Of a stretch of DNA of 64,000 nt, positions 41,533-53,903 are shown piece after piece (within the stretch, counting starts at the first letter, position 1; each line of letters opens with the position of its first letter). The notes beneath the pieces are model-generated. The model was not told the DNA's origin. It made no database searches and saw only the letters and a list, made by a program, of their open reading frames with translations. A program made the position numbers and the translations under genes. Source of the DNA: Christiangramia gaetbulicola (GTDB taxonomy: Bacteria > Bacteroidota > Bacteroidia > Flavobacteriales > Flavobacteriaceae); contig NZ_QBKQ01000003.1 in the NCBI RefSeq assembly GCF_003054225.1, positions 558,001 to 622,000 of the forward strand, written 5' to 3'.

Positions 41533-42747
41533 TTAGGCCATTTCAGTATCCATCACCCCAACTTTGGTCATACATTCTTTCATCATTTCATAAGTTCTTG
41601 CAATATCGTTATCAAGACCAATAGAAAAACGGATCAACCCATCACTTAATCCCATTTCCTTTTGCTCTTCAATTGGGATTTCTGAAGAAGTTGAAGTTCC
41701 CGGCGCACTGAATAAAGTTTTGTAGAATCCTAAACTAACCGCGAGGTAGCCCAGGTTGCGCTCCTGCATTAGCTCCATAAGCTCATTCGCTTTATCCAGC
41801 GAACCAACATCTATGGTCAGCATTCCACCAAAGCCATAACTTTCATTCATCATTTTACGGAAAGTCTCATGTCCCGGGTGAGATTTAAGACCAGGATAAA
41901 CGGTTTTAAATCCGTCTTCCTGGAATTTATGAGCCAGGTACATGGCGTTATGACTGTGTTGTTTCATTCGAATATGCAGGGTTCTGAGATTCTTAAGAAT
42001 GGAAGCCGCTCTCAGGCTATCCATAGTTGGTCCCAGCAACATCGCAGCACCGTCATTCACGTTACGCAGGTCGTTGATGAATTCCTTAGTTCCGCAAACA
42101 ACTCCACCCACAGTATCACTACTACCATTAATAAACTTGGTAAGACTATGAATAACCACATCTGCTCCTAATTTAGCCGGGCTAATTGAAAGCGGAGAGA
42201 AGGTATTATCTACTACCAGTTTAAGTTTGTGCACTTTGGTGATATTCGATAAAGCCTCCAGATCTGCAACCTCCAGTAACGGATTGCTTACAGATTCACA
42301 GTAGATAAGCTTTGTGTTTTTTTGTATTGCTTCATTAACCAGAAGCGGATTGGTGATGTCCACAAAAGTTGTTTCTATCCCGAACTTCGGAGCGAAATTC
42401 TTAAGAAAAGCATAGGTGCCCCCATAAATGGTTCTGCTGCAAACAATATGATCCCCGGCATTGCATAACTGCATTAATACAGAAGTGATCGCGCCCATTC
42501 CAGAAGCGGCAACATTTGCTGCTTCGGTTCCTTCCATTGCGGCAAGAGCTTCACCAAGATAAAGATTTGAAGGAGAGGAATGTCTTGAGTATAAGTAACA
42601 ACCTTCAGCATTTCCTTCAAATGTATCGAACATCGTTTTGGCTGAAAGGAAGGTATAAGTTGATGAATCGGAAATTGAAGGATTTACTCCTCCAAATTCT
42701 CCAAAGTATTGTAGATCCTGAATACGGTCTGCCGGTTTATATTTCAT
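41533..42747 (-). CDS. Cys/Met-metabolism PLP enzyme, methionine gamma-lyase type
   Basis: 404 residues, fold-type I PLP enzyme. YLYSRHSSPSNLYLGEALAAMEGTEAANVAASGMGAI shows the Tyr/Arg phosphate-binding region of the adjacent subunit and the Gly-Met of the MGL family. The PLP Lys is in VIHSLTKFINGSSDTVGG. It could be a methionine gamma-lyase, cystathionine lyase or O-acylhomoserine sulfhydrylase; the length and SGMGAI favour a gamma-lyase. Divergent from an Lrp-type regulator, an arrangement that often means amino-acid-responsive control. Confidence 0.82.
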   Translation of the reverse strand: MKYKPADRIQDLQYFGEFGGVNPSISDSSTYTFLSAKTMFDTFEGNAEGCYLYSRHSSPSNLYLGEALAAMEGTEAANVAASGMGAITSVLMQLCNAGDHIVCSRTIYGGTYAFLKNFAPKFGIETTFVDITNPLLVNEAIQKNTKLIYCESVSNPLLEVADLEALSNITKVHKLKLVVDNTFSPLSISPAKLGADVVIHSLTKFINGSSDTVGGVVCGTKEFINDLRNVNDGAAMLLGPTMDSLRAASILKNLRTLHIRMKQHSHNAMYLAHKFQEDGFKTVYPGLKSHPGHETFRKMMNESYGFGGMLTIDVGSLDKANELMELMQERNLGYLAVSLGFYKTLFSAPGTSTSSEIPIEEQKEMGLSDGLIRFSIGLDNDIARTYEMMKECMTKVGVMDTEMA

Positions 42748-42904
42748 GATGAGTCATTTTATACTATCAAAATTGGTTAGAATATGTACTAAAAACAATG
42801 ATTCTTATCATATTCAGAAAATAAATCTATGGTTAGTCTTAATTTCAGTTTTAAAATCTATATTTAATTGAAAACTGAGTGACTTTCTGAAAATTTGTAA
42901 GAAT

Positions 42905-43363
42905 ATGAAAATTGATGAAATAGATAAAAGGATCCTGAGGCATCTCCAGCAGGATAGTAAAAAGACCAATAAAGAGATAGCAAATGATCTGGGACTTTCG
43001 GTAACCGCAGTATATGAAAGGATAAGGAAACTGGAAAGGGAAGGGATTATTTCGAAATATGTAGCCTTGCTGAATCCCGAAAAGATCGAAAAAGGATTTA
43101 TGGTGCTATGCCAGATCAAACTCATTCAGCATAAAAAAGATTTCTTGACTAAATTTGAAAAGGAGATCACCAGCCTCCCTGAAGTTATCGAATGTCTACA
43201 CGTTAGTGGTGATTACGATTATATACTAAAAGTGCTGGTAAAGGATATGGATGCCTACCGGGAATTCATGGTTACCAAGCTCACCAGCCTTGACCATATT
43301 GGGAGCACCAAAAGTATTTTTACGATCAATAAAGTAAAGCAAAGTACGGTGATTAGTTTGTAG
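42905..43363 (+). CDS. Lrp/AsnC family transcriptional regulator
   Basis: 152 residues. N-terminal HTH: IDEIDKRILRHLQQDSKKTNKEIANDLGLSVTAVYERIRKLEREGII. C-terminal RAM/AsnC ligand domain: VIECLHVSGDYDYILKVLVKDMDAYREFM. Such proteins bind amino acids and wrap DNA as octamers. It lies 157 bp from the divergent lyase gene and 456 bp upstream of the aminotransferase that starts the next cluster, so it may control either. Confidence 0.94.
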   Translation: MKIDEIDKRILRHLQQDSKKTNKEIANDLGLSVTAVYERIRKLEREGIISKYVALLNPEKIEKGFMVLCQIKLIQHKKDFLTKFEKEITSLPEVIECLHVSGDYDYILKVLVKDMDAYREFMVTKLTSLDHIGSTKSIFTINKVKQSTVISL

Positions 43364-43819: not shown

Positions 43820-45130
43820 ATGATCGAACAGAAAAGCCAGTCAGAAGAACTACTGGAAAGAAGAAAGAATATAGTAGCCAACGGAGTTGGAGTTTTTAAT
43901 ACAGCCACAGTAAAAGAAGCAAAAGGAGCAATAATCACAGATGTAGATGGCCGGAAACTTATAGATTTCGCCGGTGGCATAGGAGTAGTAAATGCAGGCC
44001 ATTGTCCTGAGCCGGTAGTTGAAGCTATTCGGGAACAGGCAGGGAAATACCTGCACACCAGCTTTAATGTGGTGACTTATGAGCCTTATATTAAACTCTG
44101 TGAAGAGTTGGCAGAAATACTTCCACATGGTGAGAAAACTAAAGCCATGCTTATTAGTACCGGGGCTGAAGCCGTAGAAAATGCGATCAAGATTGCTAGG
44201 CAGGCTACTAAAAGACCGGCGGTATTATGTTATACAGAAGCTTATCATGGCCGTACCCTTATGGCGATGAGTCTTACGAGTAAGGTGAATTATAAGTTTT
44301 CTTCGGGACCCTTCGCTCCTGAAGTTTACCGTATTCCTTTTCCTAATTTCTATAAATACAGTGGGACACAGGACATGGATGATTTTGTCGAAACTGAGCT
44401 AAACCGCCTCCGGGATAGCGCCCATAGCATAGTTGATATTAATAGTGTAGCTGCGATCATTATAGAGCCTATCCAGGGAGAGGGAGGTTTTAATCCTGTA
44501 CCTCAGAAATACCTGGAAGGTCTGCGAGCATTTTGTGATGAATATGGCGTGCTGTTGATAATGGATGAGATCCAGAGTGGCTTTTGCCGAACCGGGCAGT
44601 GGGCAAGCTGGCAACATTATAATGTACAGCCAGATATAAGTACGTACGCCAAGTCCCTTGGTTCTGGTTTACCCATAGCTGCAGTTCTTGGTAAGGCAGA
44701 AATTATGGATGCGGCTGGACCGGGTACTATTGGCGGAACCTATATTGGAAGTCCCGTTTGTTGTGCTGCAGCCCTTGCCACGATTCAGTATATGAAAGAT
44801 CTGAATCTTAACGAAAAAGCGATTCATATTGGAAAAATCGTCACTGATAGAATGAAAAAACTTCAGAAGGAGTTTTCTGATATAGGTGATGTAAGAGGGG
44901 TTGGAGCAATGATAGGAATTGAGTTCGTCAAGGATAACGACCCAGGAAAACCTAACGGAGAACTTTGCGATAAAATAGTAAAAGGTTGCGCCGCCGAAGG
45001 TTTAGTGCTTTTAAGTGCGGGAACCTTTAAAAATGTGATAAGGATACTTTCTCCCCTTGTAATTTCAGACGAGCATCTAAATCAAGGTCTCGATATTCTG
45101 GAAGATCAGATCAGAAAAAATATAGGATAG
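43820..45130 (+). CDS. gabT: Class III omega-aminotransferase, GABA aminotransferase-like
   Basis: 436 residues. FAGGIGVVNAGHCPEPVVEAIREQA, then STGAEAVENAIKIAR binds the PLP phosphate, YHGRTLMAMSLTSK follows, and LIMDEIQSGFCRTGQW holds the Asp contacting the PLP ring. The Schiff-base Lys is in TYAKSLGSGLPIAAVLG. This matches GabT, which turns GABA or a related omega-amino acid into a semialdehyde. A dehydrogenase for such a product is encoded about 7.4 kb downstream at the end of the same gene run. Confidence 0.88.
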   Translation: MIEQKSQSEELLERRKNIVANGVGVFNTATVKEAKGAIITDVDGRKLIDFAGGIGVVNAGHCPEPVVEAIREQAGKYLHTSFNVVTYEPYIKLCEELAEILPHGEKTKAMLISTGAEAVENAIKIARQATKRPAVLCYTEAYHGRTLMAMSLTSKVNYKFSSGPFAPEVYRIPFPNFYKYSGTQDMDDFVETELNRLRDSAHSIVDINSVAAIIIEPIQGEGGFNPVPQKYLEGLRAFCDEYGVLLIMDEIQSGFCRTGQWASWQHYNVQPDISTYAKSLGSGLPIAAVLGKAEIMDAAGPGTIGGTYIGSPVCCAAALATIQYMKDLNLNEKAIHIGKIVTDRMKKLQKEFSDIGDVRGVGAMIGIEFVKDNDPGKPNGELCDKIVKGCAAEGLVLLSAGTFKNVIRILSPLVISDEHLNQGLDILEDQIRKNIG

Positions 45131-45236
45131 GTACACTGGAATGAGTCAATTCTGAAAAAGAATGACGAAAAATTCTGTGTGCAGAAAGCTCATTCAGTTT
45201 AAACCCATTAACCATTTAAAATAATAATTATAAGTA

Positions 45237-46172
45237 ATGAATCCATTCGCAATTGCAGGAATACAAATGAAAGTCTCAGCGGTCGCTCCCAATGTGGAGA
45301 TGATGAAGCTGAAACTTGATATTACCATGAGCCTTTATCCATGGGTAGATATGGTAGTATTTAGTGAGTTATGCGGGTATGGTCCATTAACCCATACCGC
45401 GCAGGAAATACCTGGAGATTTTGAACAGGAAATGTGCAAAATGGCCAGAAAACATAAGATCTGGTTATTGCCGGGTTCTATTTTTGAAAAATCTGAAGGT
45501 AAGATCTACAACACAGCCACGGTAATAAATCCCGATGGAGAAGTAGTTACGAGATATAGAAAAATGTTTCCTTTTTATCCCTATGAAGTAGGGGTAACTC
45601 CCGGATCAGAATTTTGTGTATTTGACGTACCGGGTGTTGCGAAATTTGGTTTATCCATCTGTTACGATATGTGGTTTCCTGAAACCGTGCGTACCCTAAC
45701 AGTTATGGGAGCAGAGGTAATTCTGCATCCAACGATGACGGGGACCATAGACAGAGAAATTGAATTATCTATAGTCAGGGCCATGGCAGCGGTTAATCAA
45801 TGCTACTTTTTTGACGTAAACGGATTGGAATCGGGTGGAAGCGGTAGATCTATAGTATGCGGTCCAGATGGACGTGTGATCTATCAGGCAGAAGGGAATG
45901 AAGAAATTTTTCCGCTGGAATTAAATATAGACAGAGTAAGAAGAAGCAGGGAGCTTGGAATACTTAGACTAGGCCAACCCTTAAAAAGTTTCAGGGATCA
46001 CATTGGCCAGTTCGGCATCTATCAACAAGGTGCGCAATTACCTTATCTCAATTCACTGGGGCCACTTATAAAGCCAACCAAACTCGACACCCTGTCAAAA
46101 TTAAAAATGCAGGAAAATGAATATGAACCACCTGCAAATCCTACAGGTTATAAAGGCTTTAACGAACTATAA
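45237..46172 (+). CDS. Carbon-nitrogen hydrolase (nitrilase superfamily amidase)
   Basis: 311 residues. The catalytic triad is visible: E44 (VVFSELCGYG), K109 (TRYRKMFPFYP) and C142 (GLSICYDMWFPE). The FPFYPYEVGVTPG insert and length resemble the aliphatic amidase/formamidase and N-carbamoyl-amine amidohydrolase groups. It should hydrolyse an amide or carbamoyl C-N bond in the cytoplasm. The substrate is unknown; neighbours imply an amine or amino-acid derivative. Confidence 0.88.
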   Translation: MNPFAIAGIQMKVSAVAPNVEMMKLKLDITMSLYPWVDMVVFSELCGYGPLTHTAQEIPGDFEQEMCKMARKHKIWLLPGSIFEKSEGKIYNTATVINPDGEVVTRYRKMFPFYPYEVGVTPGSEFCVFDVPGVAKFGLSICYDMWFPETVRTLTVMGAEVILHPTMTGTIDREIELSIVRAMAAVNQCYFFDVNGLESGGSGRSIVCGPDGRVIYQAEGNEEIFPLELNIDRVRRSRELGILRLGQPLKSFRDHIGQFGIYQQGAQLPYLNSLGPLIKPTKLDTLSKLKMQENEYEPPANPTGYKGFNEL

Positions 46173-46184
46173 AATAAGAAAACT

Positions 46185-46589
46185 ATGGGCGGAACTACAT
46201 CAAAGAGAAAAAAGAAAGAAACCAATAAAGGCATTATAAGCTGGTTTGAGATCCCGGCTATAAATTTTCAGCAATCTGTTGATTTCTACAATCAGATCTT
46301 CGGAATTGATATGGAAAAGAACTTTGATGATAATTATGCCATGGCTTTTTTTCCAGTTGATAACGGTATAGGAGGGGCCATCGTAAAAGGTCCAGGCTCC
46401 ACGCCAAGTGACACAGGACCACTGTTATATTTAAATGCAGGGCAAGATCTAAATACTATTCTGAAAAGGGTGGAACCTGCAGGAGGAAGGATCGTAATGA
46501 CGAAAACACTCATTAATGAAGAGTCTGGTTTCTTTGCCATTTTCATTGATTCTGAAGGAAATAAACTGGCCCTACATTCAAACAAATAA
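46185..46589 (+). CDS. VOC/glyoxalase-like protein with basic N-terminus
   Basis: 134 residues. One glyoxalase/bleomycin-resistance module: ISWFEIPAINFQQSVDFYNQIFG at the start and FFAIFIDSEGNKLALHSNK at the end, the usual last strand. The first metal-ligand position is Glu in FEIPA. The N-terminus MGGTTSKRKKKETNKG is strongly basic, as are tails on the next two proteins. It is 12 bp after the C-N hydrolase and 5 bp before the decarboxylase, so the three are surely co-transcribed. Confidence 0.85.
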   Translation: MGGTTSKRKKKETNKGIISWFEIPAINFQQSVDFYNQIFGIDMEKNFDDNYAMAFFPVDNGIGGAIVKGPGSTPSDTGPLLYLNAGQDLNTILKRVEPAGGRIVMTKTLINEESGFFAIFIDSEGNKLALHSNK

Positions 46590-46594
46590 AATTT

Positions 46595-49342
46595 ATGCAA
46601 GAAAATAAACCGGATAGTTCATATCATTATAATGTCGCCCAACTTCGGCTGGAGTCCTGGAATAATTTAAAGAATGAATCCACAAAACTGGAAAAATGTA
46701 ACCGCGGTTCTTCAGACGAAAAAAAGCTACAGAACAATCTTCGTCGTTTATTAAACGACATAGAGGTTATTGAGAGCTATTTTGCATTTCCTGGCATTTT
46801 ACGTTTGCGCACACTGAATGAAATGCTGGAAAGGCAGGAACATACTGCTCTTACCAATAAGATAGCCGAAATTACCAAACATCTGGTAAGCGACAGGTAC
46901 AGGAGCAATCCAGATTTGATGGAAGATGAAGACCAGGGTGTGGAGATCTCTGATAGAGGAGAATATCCCGAAGCTGTTAAAAAGAACTATTTTGAGGTTT
47001 TATTTGTTGAAGATATTTCACTTCAGGAGGAGTGTAAACTTCGTAACGACCTTAAAGATCTTAGGGGAGCTAACGAACAGTTTAATTACGGCATTGTGGT
47101 GCAACGCTCTTTTGAGGATGCATTAATCGCTTTGCACTTTAATTATAACATTCAGGCCGTGGTGGTTCGCTATGCGCCGCCTTATCATTCCAAGAAGTTA
47201 ACTCCAACTTTAAAACCATTTGTTCAGAAAGTTTTGAACCTCGACCTGGCTTCAAAACCTTCCTCTGAACTGGGGCCGGTACTGGGAGATCTCGTAAAAA
47301 AGTTCAGACCAGAATTAGATACTTATTATGTTACCGATACAGCTCTGGGAAAACTTAAGGACACAACCTTAAAAAGTTTCAGGAGAATTTTCTACCGTAC
47401 AGAAGATCTCCAGGAATTACATCTTACCATATTACGCGGAATTAGTGAGCGTTATGAAACCCCATTCTTTTCAGCATTAAAGGAGTACAGTAAAAAACCA
47501 ACCGGTATATTTCATGCGATGCCTATTTCAAGGGGGAATTCGGTTTTTAAGTCAAGGTGGATCAATGATTTCGGTAATTTCTACGGAAGAAATATGTTCC
47601 TGGCCGAAACTTCTTCCACTACGGGTGGGCTGGATTCCTTACTGCAGCCAACCGGATCTTTGAAGAAAGCACAGAAAATGGCCAGCGATGCCTATGGCTC
47701 GTTGAATACCTTTTTTGTGACCAATGGAACTTCAACAGCAAACAAGATCGTAGTTCAGGCACTGGTAAAACCTGGGGATGTGATCCTGATTGACCGGGAC
47801 TGCCATAAATCACATCACTACGGACTGGTCCTTTCCGGAGCCTATCCCGTTTATCTGGATTCTTATCCTATAGAGGAATATTCAATGTATGGAGCGGTGC
47901 CACTGGAACAGATTAAAGAAAAACTGCTTCGTTTAAAAAAGGAAGGCAGACTGGACCTGGTAAAAATGTTATTGCTAACCAATTGCACCTTTGATGGCCT
48001 TGTTTACAACGTTGAAAAAGTAATGCAGGAAATTCTGGCCATTAAGCCAGATATGGTCTTTTTATGGGATGAGGCATGGTTCGCTTTTGCAGGCTTCACT
48101 TACAATTATAAGCAAAGAACAGGAATGTTCGTAGCCAAGAAACTTTATGAAAAATACAATAGCAGCGCCTATAGGGAAGAATATGAAGAACATGTAAAAA
48201 ACCTGAAGAAGGATGAGATCACGAGACTGCCAGATCCAGATAAAGTAAGGATCAGGGTATATTCAACCCAGAGTACGCACAAAACTTTGAGTAGCTTCCG
48301 CCAGGGTTCCATGATACATATCTGGGACGAAGATTTCAGAAGAAAGAGTGAAAATACCTTTATGGAAGCATATATGACGCATACTTCCACCTCACCTAAT
48401 TATCAAATGCTGGCTTCATTAGACGTTGGCAGAAGACAAGTTCAGTTTGAAGGCTATGAGCTTGTGGAGAAAAGTATAGAGATGGCCATGGTGCTTCGTG
48501 CAAAAATAAATGACCATCCAAGACTTAATAAATATTTTGATGTGCTCACCGTAAGTGATTTTATTCCTGCTGAACTTCGTAAATCAGGTCTATCTGAATA
48601 CTATAGCTCAAAAGAGGGCTGGAACAGGATGGAAACAGCCTGGGAAAAGGATGAATTTGTACTTGATCCTACTAAGATCACGCTGCATATTGGACGTACC
48701 GGGGTTGACGGCGATACCTTCAAGAACAAATATTTGATGGATAAATTCAATATCCAGATCAATAAAACCTCAAGGAATACGGTGCTGTTTATGACCAATA
48801 TCGGTACTACCCGGGGAAGTGTTACCTACCTTACCAATGCGCTGCTCAAGATAGCAGATGAACTGGATAAGGAGTTGCTTTCCCTGAGTTCAAAAGAAAG
48901 TAAAATTCGGGAGGAGAAGATATATTCTTTAACCAAAGATTTTCCGCCATTACCTGATTTTAGTTATTTCCATAATTCGTTCCAGGCGGTACCGGGAGTT
49001 CCCGGAGGAAACATCAGGGAAGCCTTTTTTCTGGCTTACAATGAAGAAAACTATGAATATATGCCTCTTGAAGAGTGTCTGCCTGCAATGGAAAACGACA
49101 GAATTCTGGTAGCATCATCTTTTATTATTCCTTATCCACCTGGATTTCCAGTGCTTGTTCCTGGCCAGGTAGTTAGTAAAGAGATCATTAGATTTTTAAC
49201 GGCATTAGATGTGTCAGAAATTCACGGTTATCGTGCCGATCTGGGATTGAGAATTTTTAAGGAAAATGTGCTGAACCGGCAAAAAACCGTGACCTCCATG
49301 GGAGCGATGGGAAATAATAAAAAGAAGAAATTAATTAAATAA
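46595..49342 (+). CDS. Large Orn/Lys/Arg decarboxylase-like PLP enzyme
   Basis: 915 residues, bigger than classical decarboxylases of 710-750. Residues about 130-200 look like a wing/receiver-type domain. The PLP core has FFVTNGTSTANKIVVQA, DRDCHKSHHYG (H404), DEAWFAFAGF (D492) and the Schiff-base Lys K563 in YSTQSTHKTLSSF. HIGRTGVDGDTFKNKYL begins the C-terminal region. It should decarboxylate a basic amino acid, but the specificity is unclear. It ends in a poly-Lys tail (NNKKKKLIK). Central enzyme of the cluster. Confidence 0.87.
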   Translation: MQENKPDSSYHYNVAQLRLESWNNLKNESTKLEKCNRGSSDEKKLQNNLRRLLNDIEVIESYFAFPGILRLRTLNEMLERQEHTALTNKIAEITKHLVSDRYRSNPDLMEDEDQGVEISDRGEYPEAVKKNYFEVLFVEDISLQEECKLRNDLKDLRGANEQFNYGIVVQRSFEDALIALHFNYNIQAVVVRYAPPYHSKKLTPTLKPFVQKVLNLDLASKPSSELGPVLGDLVKKFRPELDTYYVTDTALGKLKDTTLKSFRRIFYRTEDLQELHLTILRGISERYETPFFSALKEYSKKPTGIFHAMPISRGNSVFKSRWINDFGNFYGRNMFLAETSSTTGGLDSLLQPTGSLKKAQKMASDAYGSLNTFFVTNGTSTANKIVVQALVKPGDVILIDRDCHKSHHYGLVLSGAYPVYLDSYPIEEYSMYGAVPLEQIKEKLLRLKKEGRLDLVKMLLLTNCTFDGLVYNVEKVMQEILAIKPDMVFLWDEAWFAFAGFTYNYKQRTGMFVAKKLYEKYNSSAYREEYEEHVKNLKKDEITRLPDPDKVRIRVYSTQSTHKTLSSFRQGSMIHIWDEDFRRKSENTFMEAYMTHTSTSPNYQMLASLDVGRRQVQFEGYELVEKSIEMAMVLRAKINDHPRLNKYFDVLTVSDFIPAELRKSGLSEYYSSKEGWNRMETAWEKDEFVLDPTKITLHIGRTGVDGDTFKNKYLMDKFNIQINKTSRNTVLFMTNIGTTRGSVTYLTNALLKIADELDKELLSLSSKESKIREEKIYSLTKDFPPLPDFSYFHNSFQAVPGVPGGNIREAFFLAYNEENYEYMPLEECLPAMENDRILVASSFIIPYPPGFPVLVPGQVVSKEIIRFLTALDVSEIHGYRADLGLRIFKENVLNRQKTVTSMGAMGNNKKKKLIK

Positions 49343-49351
49343 TAAAGCATT

Positions 49352-51031
49352 ATGGATAATAAGAAACCAAAAACAACTAAAGATAAAAAGACCAAATCTG
49401 CAATTAAAACAGGTTCAGACAGAACTAAAATTCCTATCCGGGGGAAGTCTGATAATTCTAAAAAGCAAGCTCCGAAAGCTAAACCCCAACCTGCGGCGAA
49501 AAAATCGAGAGCCAAAGCTAAAACTGCAGCTTCCAAGGAAAAGGACACTAAAAAAACTATAAAAAAAGCTGTTTCGAAGAAGTCTGAATTAAATGGAGTT
49601 TCAGATATCAGAAGGTCTTTTCATAAGAACGAGGAACCTCTGTATTTTATCAGCGCCACCAATTTTAATCTGTTAGGAGCAGATGAATGGATCAAAGGTT
49701 TCAAATTCATTACTTATATCGAATGTTTTGACGGTTTGCATCCAAATGTATTTTCTCCAAAACAGGAAATTCCTCATGATGATTTTGAAGGAATAGAAGA
49801 TATCAACAACTATTTGCTTCAGCATCCTGAAGTACAGGACTATCTAAAGACCAGATCTGTAGATGGAAGGCCGGGAAAAGCAATGTTTCTTATGTTCAAT
49901 GAAGAAACAGAAAGACTTGCTGAGAAACTAGGCCTGGAGATCATGTTCCCAAGTGCCGAAATGAGAACTTTCCTTGATAATAAGGTAAATACTAATAGAA
50001 TTGCTGAGAGAGCAGGAGTTTCCTGTGTTCCTTATGTACTTTCAAAAGTGAATGATTATGGACACCTTCAGGAAGTATCCAAAGAACTAGGGGAAAAACT
50101 CGTAATCCAAACACCTTTTGGGGATTCAGGGCATACTACTTTCTTTATTTCCAATGAGGAAGAATATCAAAAATACGCCGAGGAGATCGAGTCCGAAGAT
50201 GAGGTAAAGATCATGAAACGTATTCGTTGCAGAGGTTCTGCAATTGAAGCTTGTGTAACCCGTCACGGAACTATCGTAGCCCCGCTAATGACCGAATTGG
50301 TGGGCTTTGAAGAACTAACTCCTTATGAAGGTGGTTGGTGTGGAAACGAGATCTATCCCAACGCTTTTACCCCTGAACTAAGGCAGAAGGCAATCGAGAA
50401 TACCCAGTTATTTGGAGATCAGTTACGTAAAGAAGGTTACAAAGGGTATTTTGAGCTTGATTTTTTAATAGATCAGGATAACGGTGAAATTTACCTGGGT
50501 GAACTTAATCCAAGGGTGACCGGAGCGAGTTCTATTACCAACCATGCGGTATTTGCCCTTGCAGATGCGCCATTATTCGTTTTTCATATTCTGGAATGGA
50601 TGGATATTGAATATGATCTGGACATAGCTGCGATCAACAAGCGCTGGTCCAATCAGGAAAATCTTGATGGCTGGAGCCAGTTAATAGTAAAACATACAGA
50701 GGATACTGTAGAGTATGTAACCGGAGCACCAAAATCAGGGATATGGAGAATGTATGATACCGGTCATATCCAGTATGATAGAATGGATACACACCGTAGA
50801 GCTGTGGAAAATGAAAATGAAGCATTCTTTTTAAGGATTTCCAAAAAAGGAGATTACCTGTATGAAGGAGCCGATATGGGAATTCTGGTAACCAGAGGTC
50901 GAATGATGACAGATGATTTTAAACTGAATAACAGAGCCAAGCACTGGATAAAAGCGATACGTTCACAGTATACATCTGAAATGGTAGAGGATAAGAAGAA
51001 GCCTAACCTGTCTGGAACTTTAACTAAATAA
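49352..51031 (+). CDS. ATP-grasp ligase with histone-like basic N-terminal tail
   Basis: 559 residues. Residues 1-80 are a Lys/Ala/Pro-rich low-complexity tail (KPKTTKDKKTKSAIK, PAAKKSRAKAKTAASK). The rest is a biotin-carboxylase-like ATP-grasp enzyme: DNKVNTNRIAERAGVSCVPYV, the ATP-binding strand KLVIQTPFGDSGHTTFF, and the Mg-binding YFELDFLIDQDNGEIYLGELNPRVTG. No biotin carrier domain is present, so it more likely joins a carboxylate to an amine. It is 9 bp after the decarboxylase. Confidence 0.85.
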   Translation: MDNKKPKTTKDKKTKSAIKTGSDRTKIPIRGKSDNSKKQAPKAKPQPAAKKSRAKAKTAASKEKDTKKTIKKAVSKKSELNGVSDIRRSFHKNEEPLYFISATNFNLLGADEWIKGFKFITYIECFDGLHPNVFSPKQEIPHDDFEGIEDINNYLLQHPEVQDYLKTRSVDGRPGKAMFLMFNEETERLAEKLGLEIMFPSAEMRTFLDNKVNTNRIAERAGVSCVPYVLSKVNDYGHLQEVSKELGEKLVIQTPFGDSGHTTFFISNEEEYQKYAEEIESEDEVKIMKRIRCRGSAIEACVTRHGTIVAPLMTELVGFEELTPYEGGWCGNEIYPNAFTPELRQKAIENTQLFGDQLRKEGYKGYFELDFLIDQDNGEIYLGELNPRVTGASSITNHAVFALADAPLFVFHILEWMDIEYDLDIAAINKRWSNQENLDGWSQLIVKHTEDTVEYVTGAPKSGIWRMYDTGHIQYDRMDTHRRAVENENEAFFLRISKKGDYLYEGADMGILVTRGRMMTDDFKLNNRAKHWIKAIRSQYTSEMVEDKKKPNLSGTLTK

Positions 51032-51139
51032 AATTTTTATTTAACAGCTAACACAAATAAAAGGAACTACTTTGCTCCACTTGTTTTTAGATTAAAATAA
51101 GAGTAAAAACGGGCTTACACAGTTTAATAATAAAAATTC

Positions 51140-52378
51140 ATGCAACTACATTTTAATGCAGTTTCTGAAGCCGGTTTACCGGGGAAGAAGTGGCAAAATT
51201 TATATAATACACACTGGTCTGCCTATAAGAACTGGCTACTTTCCAAAGGAAAAGCCTATGAACCAGATCTGAAAACATCCCAGGCGGCACTTAAAAAATA
51301 TATGCCAGAAATGTGGCCCACCTATAAACGTCTTTGCAAACTGGCAAAGGCAGACGATGTAGCGGCACGCTTTTTAACCGGTTTTCAGCCACCGGCTTAT
51401 ATCAGTGCCTGCTCCAATGCAGTACTTTCTGGTGAAGAGATACAACTGGTGCGAAATTATGATTATCATCCAGATCTTATGGAAGGCACGCAATTGTTGA
51501 GTGCCTGGAATGGTAAAAAAGTGATCGCGACCAGTGACTGCCTTATTGGGGTAGTGGATGGGATGAATGAAGATGGCCTCGCCATTTCCCTTACTTTCGG
51601 TGGTCGAAAAGAAGTTGGGGTAGGTTTCGGAATTCCATTTATCTTGAGGTATGTCCTTGAATTTTCTAGTAATGTAGAGGAGGCGGTCGCAGCCTTGATC
51701 CGTATTCCTTCGCATATGTCTTATAATGTTACCGTCGTAGATAAGACGGGAGCTTTTAAGACCGTTCGTATTGCACCAGACAAAGACGCAGTGGTTACCA
51801 ATGCCGCCTTTACTACTAATCACCAGGGCGCTGTGGATTGGCCGGAGAATGCGGCTTTCAATAAAACGTTGGAACGATCTGCTTTTTTAGAAAAGGTACT
51901 GGCGAAAAAAGGGATAAATGCAACTAAAATTGCAGATGCCTTTCTTAAAAAGCCTTTGTATAACACTCAATTCAAAGAAGGCTTCGGAACCTTATTCACT
52001 TCAGTTTACCGCCCTCTTGATGGAGTTGTTGAAATGCGCTGGCCGGGTATAAAGATCAGTCAGACGTTTGAGGATTTCCAGGAGCAGTACAAATTGATCG
52101 AACTTGAGCAGCCTTCTGTAAGGCCTGAGAAAGTTTCAGCAGATACCCCTGTGTACAGTCCAGTCTCATTATTGAAGAGTCAGGATGAGGTGAATTGGCA
52201 GGAAACTGTCACCGCAGCAATTGCGAATGCTATGGCAACAGCGTATCCAGATTTAGATAAAGAGGAGTTGAAAAATCTTCAGGGAGAATTAATTCATCGT
52301 GGAGAAGTGTCCTGGGAGGTTCTGGCCGATTTCTGGTCCAGGGTTGGAACAGACTACGGCAGCAGATGGTATAATTAG
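51140..52378 (+). CDS. C45-type Ntn-hydrolase / acyltransferase
   Basis: 412 residues. The candidate nucleophile is C91, following A90 in YISACSNAVLSGEEI. The motif LVRNYDYHPDL next to it is typical of the acyl-CoA:6-aminopenicillanate acyltransferase (peptidase C45) family, which cleaves itself before the Cys to create the active N-terminus. About 90 residues would be the propeptide/alpha chain. FGIPFILRYVLEFSS and SHMSYNVTVVDKTG are further family segments. It hydrolyses or transfers an amide-linked acyl group; substrate unknown. Follows the ATP-grasp ligase by 108 bp. Confidence 0.83.
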   Translation: MQLHFNAVSEAGLPGKKWQNLYNTHWSAYKNWLLSKGKAYEPDLKTSQAALKKYMPEMWPTYKRLCKLAKADDVAARFLTGFQPPAYISACSNAVLSGEEIQLVRNYDYHPDLMEGTQLLSAWNGKKVIATSDCLIGVVDGMNEDGLAISLTFGGRKEVGVGFGIPFILRYVLEFSSNVEEAVAALIRIPSHMSYNVTVVDKTGAFKTVRIAPDKDAVVTNAAFTTNHQGAVDWPENAAFNKTLERSAFLEKVLAKKGINATKIADAFLKKPLYNTQFKEGFGTLFTSVYRPLDGVVEMRWPGIKISQTFEDFQEQYKLIELEQPSVRPEKVSADTPVYSPVSLLKSQDEVNWQETVTAAIANAMATAYPDLDKEELKNLQGELIHRGEVSWEVLADFWSRVGTDYGSRWYN

Positions 52379-52517
52379 AGATTCAAGGAACTCAAATATT
52401 TTATTTAAACTGCATAAATTCTTACTGCAGCAAAGTTTTATTGATCAAATCCTGGTATTCCGGATTCGATGTGGAAGCTGCATGAGGTGAAGTATTTTTC
52501 AATCCAGATAAGGTTCA

Positions 52518-53903
52518 ATGGCAAGCCTTCAAATACCAAATAAACAGATGGAATTTCATAGTGTTAACCCATATAATGGAGAACAGGTAGGTAAATATAA
52601 CGCTCAAAACAGCGTGGAACTGGATGAAGCTTTGAACAGATCTTCTGAAGCCTTTAAAACCTGGCATACTAAACCAATATCTTATCGTACGGGTTTGATC
52701 AAAAAAGCCGGACAGGTTCTTCGGGATAATCTTGAAGAATATGCTCAGATGATCACTTCTGAAATGGGGAAACCAATTTCAGAATCCCGGGCCGAAGTGA
52801 ATAAATGTGCGTGGGTTTGTGATTACTATGCAGAAAATGCTGAAACTTTTCTTTCTCCCGAGATCATAAAAACCGATGCTGCTCAGAGTTTTGTAAGACA
52901 TGATCCCATAGGGGCTGTCTTTGCTATTATGCCATGGAATTTTCCTTTCTGGCAGGTCTTTAGGTTTGCAGCGCCAACTTTAACCGCCGGGAATACTGGA
53001 TTATTGAAACATGCACCGAATGTTTTTGGTTGTGCCGTGAAAATCGAAGAAGTTTTTACCAAGGCCGGATTTCCTGAAGGCGTATTTCAGAATTTGATAG
53101 TTCACCACGATCAAACGGAAAAGATCATAGCACATGATGCTGTAAAAGCAATCACGCTTACGGGAAGTGAGATGGCAGGATCTGCTGTTGCTCAAATAGC
53201 CGGAAAATACATTAAAAAAAGTTTGCTGGAACTAGGAGGGAACAACTCCTTTATTGTGTTAGAAGATGCTGATATAGATCTTGCGGTAAAGACCGCGGTT
53301 TCTGCGAGAATGCTTAATTGTGGACAAAGTTGTATCGCGGCAAAACGCTTTATTTTAATAGAATCTATACACGATGAGTTCGTATCGAAATTTACCGATG
53401 CCATAAAGAACCTGAAAGCAGGAGATACAAAAGATGGCGCTACCCAGGTAGGATCGCTGGCAAGAAAAGATCTGGCAGATCAACTTAACCGTCAGGTAAA
53501 AGAGTCTGTTTCGCAGGGAGCAAAGTTACTTCTGGGAGGAAAACAGGATAAGTGTTTTCATGAACCTACTATCCTGGGAAATGTAAAACCCGGAATGACC
53601 GCTTTTGAAGAAGAAACCTTTGGCCCTTTAGCTGCGATTATTAAAGCTAAAGATATAGACGAAGCTTTCGAATTATCTGAACAGTCAAAATTTGGACTTG
53701 GGGTTAGTGTTTTTACAAAAGACACTGCAAAAGCTGTGGAATATGCTTCCCGGGTTTCTGACGGAGCCTTTTTTGTAAATGAACTGGTGAAGTCTGATCC
53801 CAGATTGCCCTTTGGAGGAACAAAACGATCTGGTTACGGACGGGAACTGGCCAAGGATGGCATGATGGAATTTATGAATAGAAAGGTGGTTTACGTGAAA
53901 TAG
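52518..53903 (+). CDS. gabD: NAD(P)-dependent succinate-semialdehyde dehydrogenase family
   Basis: 461 residues. Class of aldehyde dehydrogenase with AIMPWNFPFWQVFRF, GLLKHAPNVFG, LTGSEMAGSAVA, the general-base Glu in LLELGGNNSF and the catalytic Cys in LNCGQSCIAAKRF. This length and RLPFGGTKRSGYGREL fit the GabD/SSADH group. It oxidises a semialdehyde to the acid. Start is the ATG at 52518; the ATG at 52548 (MEFHSVNPYNGE) is also possible. It ends the gabT-started run. Confidence 0.87.
   Translation: MASLQIPNKQMEFHSVNPYNGEQVGKYNAQNSVELDEALNRSSEAFKTWHTKPISYRTGLIKKAGQVLRDNLEEYAQMITSEMGKPISESRAEVNKCAWVCDYYAENAETFLSPEIIKTDAAQSFVRHDPIGAVFAIMPWNFPFWQVFRFAAPTLTAGNTGLLKHAPNVFGCAVKIEEVFTKAGFPEGVFQNLIVHHDQTEKIIAHDAVKAITLTGSEMAGSAVAQIAGKYIKKSLLELGGNNSFIVLEDADIDLAVKTAVSARMLNCGQSCIAAKRFILIESIHDEFVSKFTDAIKNLKAGDTKDGATQVGSLARKDLADQLNRQVKESVSQGAKLLLGGKQDKCFHEPTILGNVKPGMTAFEEETFGPLAAIIKAKDIDEAFELSEQSKFGLGVSVFTKDTAKAVEYASRVSDGAFFVNELVKSDPRLPFGGTKRSGYGRELAKDGMMEFMNRKVVYVK

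What the first reader, a model, noticed from the sequence alone, without database searches (positions are those of the whole stretch)
43820..53903. Seven-gene amine/amino-acid pathway that may use an amide-protected intermediate
Seen: seven co-oriented genes encode a GabT-like aminotransferase, C-N hydrolase, VOC protein, a 915-residue Orn/Lys/Arg decarboxylase-like enzyme, ATP-grasp ligase, C45 Ntn-hydrolase and SSADH-like dehydrogenase. C-N hydrolase to ATP-grasp junctions are 5-12 bp. Known: in the Puu pathway putrescine is gamma-glutamylated by a ligase, oxidised to aldehyde and acid, then freed by a hydrolase. Inference: decarboxylase makes an amine, the ATP-grasp enzyme caps it, aminotransferase and dehydrogenase oxidise the free end, and the C45 or C-N hydrolase removes the cap. 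The reverse, biosynthetic direction is equally possible. I know of no described pathway with this exact set.
Basis: partly seen in the sequence, partly recalled or inferred. Interest (0 to 1): 0.72.

Follow-up and report, generated by a model that had tools for sequence, protein, structure and literature searches.

The report
Conserved GABA-linked decarboxylase–ligase–hydrolase gene cassette
A seven-gene cassette shared by many marine and soil bacteria probably makes GABA from glutamate, ties it to and frees it from another molecule, and burns it for energy; the exact chemistry is undescribed, and one of its enzymes belongs to a family whose reaction is not yet known.

Summary
The seven genes are real, co-oriented and tightly spaced. 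They form a conserved cassette: in 32 Bacteroidota/Ignavibacteriota loci, picked by the ATP-grasp gene and held with both flanks, the decarboxylase is present in 32, C-N hydrolase 31, GabT 31, VOC 30, dehydrogenase 28, C45 27, collinear in 32 of 32. Ligase and decarboxylase also co-occur across genomes.

The diamine-capping reading is partly supported. The 915-aa decarboxylase is not a standard ornithine/lysine/arginine enzyme; it is full-length homologous to the orphan protein Rv2531c. Of nine relatives read without a ligase gene nearby, six sit beside AspT (aspartate antiporter) genes; of the three that do not, two come from genomes or records with the ligase elsewhere. Some ligase-linked copies lie beside glutamate genes. 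I infer an acidic-amino-acid decarboxylase, most likely glutamate to GABA, then GabT and an SSADH-like enzyme; the ligase would join GABA to an unknown partner, and C45 and/or the C-N hydrolase release it. In 11 proteobacterial loci the ligase, C45 and C-N hydrolase lie in arginine-to-GABA clusters. All activities and the partner are untested.

The parts
42905..43363 (+). Lrp/AsnC-type regulator, candidate regulator of the cassette
   Evidence: an Lrp match is found in 10 of 32 Bacteroidota/Ignavibacteriota loci with full flanks
43820..45130 (+). GabT-like class III aminotransferase; inferred GABA to succinate semialdehyde
   Evidence: TIGR00700 501.8 bits, cut-off 506.65; present in 31 of 32 loci
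45237..46172 (+). C-N hydrolase (nitrilase superfamily) with E44, K109, C142 invariant; inferred amidase
   Evidence: best solved profile match nitrilase homolog 2, 95.4 bits; 31 of 32 and 19 of 27 loci
46185..46589 (+). VOC/glyoxalase-fold protein, role unknown, accessory
   Evidence: 30 of 32 Bacteroidota/Ignavibacteriota loci, 0 of 27 proteobacterial loci
46595..49342 (+). OKR-fold PLP decarboxylase of the Rv2531c family; inferred glutamate (or aspartate) decarboxylase
   Evidence: 32 of 32 and 13 of 27 loci
49352..51031 (+). ATP-grasp enzyme (PRK06524 family, labelled biotin carboxylase); inferred amide ligase; ~80-residue Lys/Ala/Pro-rich N-terminal stretch not shared with the proteobacterial rows
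51140..52378 (+). C45 Ntn hydrolase with invariant C91, R105, N106, D108, N227, R246; inferred amide hydrolase
   Evidence: 27 of 32 and 26 of 27 loci
52518..53903 (+). SSADH-like aldehyde dehydrogenase; inferred succinate semialdehyde to succinate
   Evidence: 28 of 32 loci

Best explanation
A GABA-centred module. (1, inferred) The OKR-fold PLP enzyme decarboxylates glutamate (aspartate is the next candidate) to GABA. (2, inferred) The ATP-grasp enzyme is an amide ligase that joins GABA to an unknown partner X. (3, inferred) The C45 Ntn hydrolase, the C-N hydrolase or both hydrolyse GABA-X or a related amide. (4, inferred from family scores) GabT turns GABA into succinate semialdehyde and the dehydrogenase makes succinate. 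Shown here: the gene set, its conservation and order, its co-occurrence, intact catalytic residues, and the neighbourhoods. Not shown: any activity, the identity of X, and whether the amide is a store, a solute, a detoxified form or an imported nutrient.
For: Cassette and co-occurrence. AspT genes beside the decarboxylase in L109, L110, L111, L114, L115, L116 (two of them scored over TIGR03802's cut-off), with aspartate 4-decarboxylase genes in L114 and L115 and an HdeA/HdeB gene in L114; in the same search no AspT match at 1e-20 in the ligase loci held. NAD-glutamate dehydrogenase just upstream in L090 and PutA just downstream in L093; Glu/Leu/Phe/Val or glutamate dehydrogenase in L061, L062, L065, L127 (best model glutamate dehydrogenase, below cut-off); a glutamate-synthase-family gene in L058. 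R313 in 52 of 53 and R569 and N723 in 53 of 53 family rows after merging rows over 95% identical; LdcI has M, S and E there. GabT and dehydrogenase scores. Eleven proteobacterial loci hold ligase, C45 and C-N hydrolase in what looks like an arginine-to-GABA cluster without this decarboxylase nearby, so GABA is the shared node.
Against: AspT is named by similarity and may carry something else; L114, L115 and the ectoine genes beside L110 point to aspartate as much as to glutamate. Three of nine decarboxylase loci without a nearby ligase have no AspT: L112, and L082 and L084, whose genome or record has the ligase elsewhere. R727 is Ile in Rv2531c. C45 is missing in 5 of 32 loci, and no C45-family gene was found in two of those genomes. 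L045 keeps only VOC, decarboxylase and ligase. The window's genome and 14 of 18 others tested also carry PF00282, the family that includes ordinary glutamate decarboxylases. GABA as the ligase substrate rests on neighbourhoods alone; no structure could be predicted.
Confidence: 0.38

Rival explanations
1. Capped-amine catabolism: the ligase caps the terminal amine of ornithine or putrescine so that 4-aminobutanal cannot cyclise; decarboxylase, aminotransferase and dehydrogenase work on the capped chain; C45 or the C-N hydrolase frees GABA.
For: OKR fold; ligase and hydrolases inside operons that run from amino acids to GABA; in 11 proteobacterial loci ligase and C45 lie among arginine/ornithine-type genes, including a racemase with an arginase-like C-terminal part.
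Against: AspT and glutamate neighbours of the decarboxylase; no amine oxidase or second aminotransferase in the cassette; GabT and dehydrogenase look like GABA and SSA enzymes; the genome already has what reads by eye as an arginine decarboxylase and agmatinase pair at C1 (L103; agmatinase place).
Confidence: 0.22
2. Aspartate version: aspartate is decarboxylated to beta-alanine, and the ligase and C45 make and break beta-alanyl-X, as Black, Ebony and Tan do in insects (insect roles recalled).
For: AspT pairing and aspartate 4-decarboxylase neighbours; ectoine genes beside L110; C45 family of the hydrolase.
Against: Glutamate dehydrogenase and PutA neighbours; SSADH-type dehydrogenase and GABA-T score.
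Confidence: 0.15
3. Glutamyl route: the ligase first makes gamma-glutamyl-X, the decarboxylase turns it into GABA-X as BtrJ/BtrK do in butirosin synthesis (recalled), and a hydrolase splits it.
For: Decarboxylase and ligase are the smallest shared core (VOC, decarboxylase and ligase only in L045).
Against: AspT-linked relatives without a ligase nearby keep R313, R569, N723 and R727, which suggests a free acidic amino acid; the arginine clusters hold the ligase without this decarboxylase nearby.
Confidence: 0.12
4. Omega-aminoamide route: the PLP enzyme oxidatively decarboxylates ornithine or lysine to an omega-amino-amide, the C-N hydrolase makes GABA or 5-aminovalerate, and GabT and the dehydrogenase finish, as in the Dav pathway (recalled).
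For: C-N hydrolase, GabT and SSADH-like genes match the roles of DavA, DavT and DavD (Dav roles recalled); the C-N hydrolase keeps its catalytic residues.
Against: Leaves ligase and C45 without a role; I know of no such reaction in this fold; AspT pairing.
Confidence: 0.05

Closest known systems
GABA shunt (glutamate decarboxylase, GabT, SSADH)
   Same: GabT-like and SSADH-like genes in the cassette; a decarboxylase with glutamate-gene neighbours in some relatives
   Different: Decarboxylase of another fold family (OKR); an ATP-grasp ligase, C45 and a C-N hydrolase are added
Puu pathway of putrescine (PuuA, PuuB, PuuC, PuuD, PuuE), recalled
   Same: Ligase, hydrolase, GABA-T-like aminotransferase and aldehyde dehydrogenase in one cluster
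   Different: ATP-grasp instead of glutamine-synthetase fold, C45/C-N hydrolase instead of a class I amidotransferase fold, no oxidase, and a decarboxylase in the cluster
Black-Ebony-Tan (insect beta-alanyl amine cycle) and carnosine/homocarnosine synthesis, recalled
   Same: Logic: acidic amino acid decarboxylase, amide ligase, C45 hydrolase (Tan) or ATP-grasp ligase (carnosine synthase)
   Different: Decarboxylase from another PLP family; partner X unknown; orthology of the hydrolase with Tan not tested
Rv2531c family (M. tuberculosis, PDB 9n0n, 9n0o, 9n0p)
   Same: Full-length homology (residues 13-899, 792 bits)
   Different: Position 727 is Ile instead of Arg; reaction not clarified according to the review passages read
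Arginine transamination network of rhizobia (PMC7268258, passages read)
   Same: The 11 proteobacterial ligase-C45 loci hold enzymes of the same kinds (ketoarginine-type decarboxylase, ureohydrolase, aldehyde dehydrogenase)
   Different: The passages read name neither an ATP-grasp ligase nor a C45 enzyme as part of the route

Membership tests
OKR (group III) PLP decarboxylases | OKR_DC_1 domain with intact PLP lysine and motifs | tested here: met
   264.2 bits in Pfam, cut-off 27; K563 in 53 of 53 rows after merging rows over 95% identical
Known ornithine, lysine or arginine decarboxylases of that fold | Reach the curated cut-off of a named ODC, LDC or ADC model | tested here: not met
   Best 203.6 bits against a cut-off of 968; six models listed, none near its cut-off
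Acidic-amino-acid decarboxylase | Decarboxylates glutamate or aspartate | not testable with these tools
   Only neighbourhood and residue evidence
Biotin carboxylase | Full-domain similarity to solved biotin carboxylases | tested here: not met
   Best 34.9 bits over about 106 positions with a profile, although the NCBIfam family it passes is called biotin carboxylase; the bicarbonate motif QVEH is recalled and is not seen after ELNPR
ATP-grasp amide ligases | Amide formation from an acyl phosphate | not testable with these tools
   ELNPR stretch invariant in 22 rows; structure jobs did not run to the end
C45 Ntn hydrolases | NF040521 over cut-off and invariant nucleophile Cys | tested here: met
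   161.9 bits, cut-off 85; C91 invariant in 21 rows; autocleavage not tested
GABA transaminase (TIGR00700) | Score over the curated cut-off | tested here: not met
   501.8 bits, cut-off 506.65: just below
Puu pathway | PuuA ligase of glutamine-synthetase fold and PuuD hydrolase | tested here: not met
   Ligase is ATP-grasp; hydrolases are C45 and CN_hydrolase
GABA-amide ligase/amidase cycle | Ligase and hydrolase acting on the same GABA amide | not testable with these tools
   Needs enzyme assays

The most novel reading that the evidence does not exclude
A bacterial omega-amino-acid conjugation cycle: a glutamate decarboxylase built on the ornithine/lysine/arginine-decarboxylase fold feeds GABA to an ATP-grasp amide ligase; a C45 Ntn hydrolase and a nitrilase-type amidase take the conjugate apart; GabT and SSADH drain it. 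It would work like Black-Ebony-Tan with an unrelated decarboxylase and ligase, is spread over Bacteroidota, Ignavibacteriota and Proteobacteria, and has moved onto rhizobial symbiosis plasmids next to nifH.
Probability: 0.25. Interest if true: 0.78.

Novelty: new variant of a known kind. Interest (0 to 1): 0.6.

Why it matters
The decarboxylase belongs to a family with a cryo-EM structure but, in the review passages read (PMC12910592), no clarified reaction. The AspT pairing gives a cheap direct test: glutamate and aspartate. If right, the fold known for basic-amino-acid decarboxylases has an acidic-amino-acid branch, and labels such as 'ornithine decarboxylase' and 'biotin carboxylase' on rhizobial records mislead. 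The ligase-hydrolase pair would be a new metabolic use of GABA in marine bacteria and on symbiosis plasmids.

Tried and rejected
Structure prediction of the ligase and C45 would have opened a fold search; both jobs were interrupted and new ones were not accepted, so no fold evidence is used. PDB sequence and profile searches gave weak partial matches for the ligase, none for C45 by sequence and three weak ones by profile. Presence of PF00282 was tried as a test of redundancy and is uninformative, since that family is broad. Promoter scan: 19 sites, below the shuffle mean of 27.3; terminator-like sites 14 against 9.6; nothing used. A decarboxylase-ligase fusion was suspected from long open frames; one search shows a stop between the two genes in five loci where they share a frame (L074, L075, L078, L080, L092), and other frames in L077 and L090, so no fusion. 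The NifA link in P. phymatum (PMC8305402, passages) was dropped: its ATP-grasp gene was not shown to be this family. GabT and SSADH-like genes beside L110 first looked like GABA genes; they lie in an ectoine-catabolism stretch and are not counted for GABA. Nine paper searches (listings and starts of abstracts) gave no description of this gene set in what was listed (at most 7 to 15 papers each); the library lacks most subscription journals. The cryo-EM paper on Rv2531c is not held and is known only through its citation.

Rows dropped before counts: 10 of 42 Bacteroidota/Ignavibacteriota loci and 9 of 36 proteobacterial loci lacked full flanks (5.5 kb up, 3.5 kb down); L085 was left out as the same contig as L042. 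The 64 decarboxylase rows hold some genes twice; merged at over 95% identity they are 53, still with many close relatives. The search for related loci set favours close relatives of the query. Of 32 plasmid records with the ligase, 30 were listed and 11 of those opened; of 38 with the decarboxylase, 6 were opened from that list, chosen by eye: five labelled decarboxylase and one S. meliloti. NCBIfam names of the arginine-cluster genes were tested on one representative each, the arginase-like part on L054 only; L059 and L060 names are those of the records.
Full report
The observation. Pfam and NCBIfam confirm the family names. The window lies in a 3.64 Mb genome in 8 contigs; the nearest named locus is Christiangramia crocea, 97% identical in the ATP-grasp protein.

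Is it one unit? I used the ATP-grasp protein as bait: a scan of GTDB contigs gave 49 loci, plasmid records 32, whole-genome samples more. Of 42 Bacteroidota/Ignavibacteriota loci, 32 have enough flank; in these the decarboxylase is present in 32, C-N hydrolase 31, GabT 31, VOC 30, dehydrogenase 28 and C45 27, and the genes present are collinear and co-oriented in 32 of 32. Of 36 proteobacterial loci 27 have enough flank: C45 26, C-N hydrolase 19, decarboxylase 13, GabT 4, SSADH-like 2, VOC 0. The family is rare and patchy: ligase in 4 of 296 Bacteroidota-phylum genomes, decarboxylase in 5, C45 in 4, the same four in all three; the fifth decarboxylase hit begins at base 3 of its contig. In 337 genomes of the class of the Labrys locus, 9 have the ligase (one, G500, matched in a part only) and 9 the decarboxylase; 8 are shared. 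In the class of the Cupriavidus locus 9 of 321 genomes have the ligase. Pairwise distances of ligase, decarboxylase, C45 and C-N hydrolase correlate at 0.82 to 0.97 over 41 loci plus the window, with 0 of 2000 permutations reaching the value; vertical descent alone would also give correlation.

The decarboxylase. It matches the orphan protein Rv2531c over its length; the review passages read say its activity was not clarified. Named ornithine, lysine and arginine decarboxylase models score far below their cut-offs. PLP-binding motifs and the PLP lysine are intact. Against LdcI, M becomes R313, S becomes R569 and the Glu of the VEKTG stretch becomes N723; an arginine decarboxylase (6q6i) has G and S at the first two. 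R313 holds in 52 of 53 merged rows, R569 and N723 in 53, R727 in 50. Rv2531c shares the first three but has Ile at 727. That the lost Glu touches the far amine of the substrate is recalled, not tested.

The turning point. Nine decarboxylase loci without a ligase gene nearby were read. Six (L109, L110, L111, L114, L115, L116) have one or two AspT genes beside the decarboxylase; the two scored pass TIGR03802. Three have none: S. meliloti L112, among transposases, and L082 (Labrys) and L084 (Roseateles), whose genome or record has the ligase elsewhere. No AspT match at 1e-20 was found in the ligase loci held. L114 and L115 also hold aspartate 4-decarboxylase genes, and L114 an HdeA/HdeB gene, which looks like an acid-stress island. 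Decarboxylase-antiporter pairs usually exchange substrate for product, so an acidic substrate is the simplest reading. L109-L111 keep R313, R569, N723 and R727. In ligase-linked loci glutamate genes recur: NAD-glutamate dehydrogenase (L090) and PutA (L093), Glu/Leu/Phe/Val or glutamate dehydrogenase in rhizobia, a glutamate-synthase-family gene on the other strand in Roseobacter. With GabT and an SSADH-like enzyme in the cassette, glutamate to GABA to succinate fits best; aspartate to beta-alanine is the nearest alternative, and the aspartate 4-decarboxylase and ectoine neighbours speak for it.

The ligase and hydrolases. The ATP-grasp protein passes NF005096, a family named 'biotin carboxylase', but solved biotin carboxylases match it weakly and over a part only. 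It has an invariant ELNPR stretch and lacks the bicarbonate motif that I recall for biotin carboxylase, so an amide ligase is more likely than a carboxylase. C45 and the C-N hydrolase keep the residues that I take as catalytic (roles recalled). Neither could be given a substrate.

What the proteobacteria add. Eleven loci (L047, L048, L050-L054, L059, L060, L066, L091) share a D-amino-acid dehydrogenase, a ~600-aa racemase, a 5-guanidino-2-oxopentanoate-decarboxylase-type enzyme, an agmatinase-type ureohydrolase and a permease, most with an aldehyde dehydrogenase; the names rest on one representative each and on the records of L059 and L060. The racemase of L054 has an arginase-family C-terminal part. 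This set would make GABA from arginine. It holds ligase, C45 and C-N hydrolase but no PLP decarboxylase of this family within the stretch; of the six of these genomes or records tested (G296-G299, W02, W03), G296 and W02 have one elsewhere and G297, G298, G299 and W03 none at 1e-20. Two GABA sources thus share one ligase-hydrolase trio, which is why I place GABA, not glutamate, at the ligase. Cupriavidus L055 has ORFs beside the trio that I read by eye as arginine succinyltransferase-pathway genes.

What does not fit. C45 is absent from 5 of 32 Bacteroidota/Ignavibacteriota loci; of three such genomes tested, two have no C45-family gene and one a distant one. Five rhizobial loci (L061-L065) lack the C-N hydrolase in the stretch; L062, L064 and L126 have C45 and an amidase gene. 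Either hydrolase may do, or they act on different amides. L045 keeps only VOC, decarboxylase and ligase, and its genome has no C-N hydrolase match at 1e-15; this favours a biosynthetic core. PF00282 is present in the window's genome and in 15 of 19 genomes tested, the window's included. No transporter lies in the window cassette.

The unit, the ligase and the idea of making and breaking an amide stand; the diamine-oxidation scheme is weakened by the decarboxylase evidence. Neither scheme has been tested by experiment. I give the GABA-conjugate model 0.38, the capped-amine model 0.22, the beta-alanine version 0.15, the glutamyl-conjugate route 0.12 and the omega-aminoamide route 0.05.

Noticed in passing
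L064:1-11471; L126:1-18198: On R. leguminosarum symbiosis plasmids a decarboxylase-ligase-C45 unit starts next to and divergent from nifHDKE, followed by a peptide-type ABC importer and an amidase gene.
   Followed up: partly
L114:6839-15025: Decarboxylase relative, AspT, aspartate 4-decarboxylase and an HdeA/HdeB chaperone gene lie together, like an acid-resistance island.
   Followed up: partly
L054:13877-15688: A 604-aa protein with an alanine/ornithine-racemase-type N-terminal part and an arginase-family C-terminal part (Pfam E 8e-11).
   Followed up: partly
window 49352-49600: The ATP-grasp protein begins with about 80 Lys/Ala/Pro-rich, poorly conserved residues, also in other Bacteroidota and Ignavibacteriota rows but not in the proteobacterial stretches aligned.
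   Followed up: no
L029:11574-14050; L030:11615-13984: Two C45 genes in tandem in Brumimicrobium.
   Followed up: no
window 41533-43363: A Cys/Met-metabolism-type PLP enzyme (ORF on the - strand, read by eye as methionine gamma-lyase-like) and the Lrp gene lie beside the cassette in several related genera too.
   Followed up: no
L062:2602-6436; L127:133-3960: Beside the rhizobial copies lies a Nif11-like leader-peptide gene with two radical SAM maturation genes, then a Glu/Leu/Phe/Val dehydrogenase.
   Followed up: no
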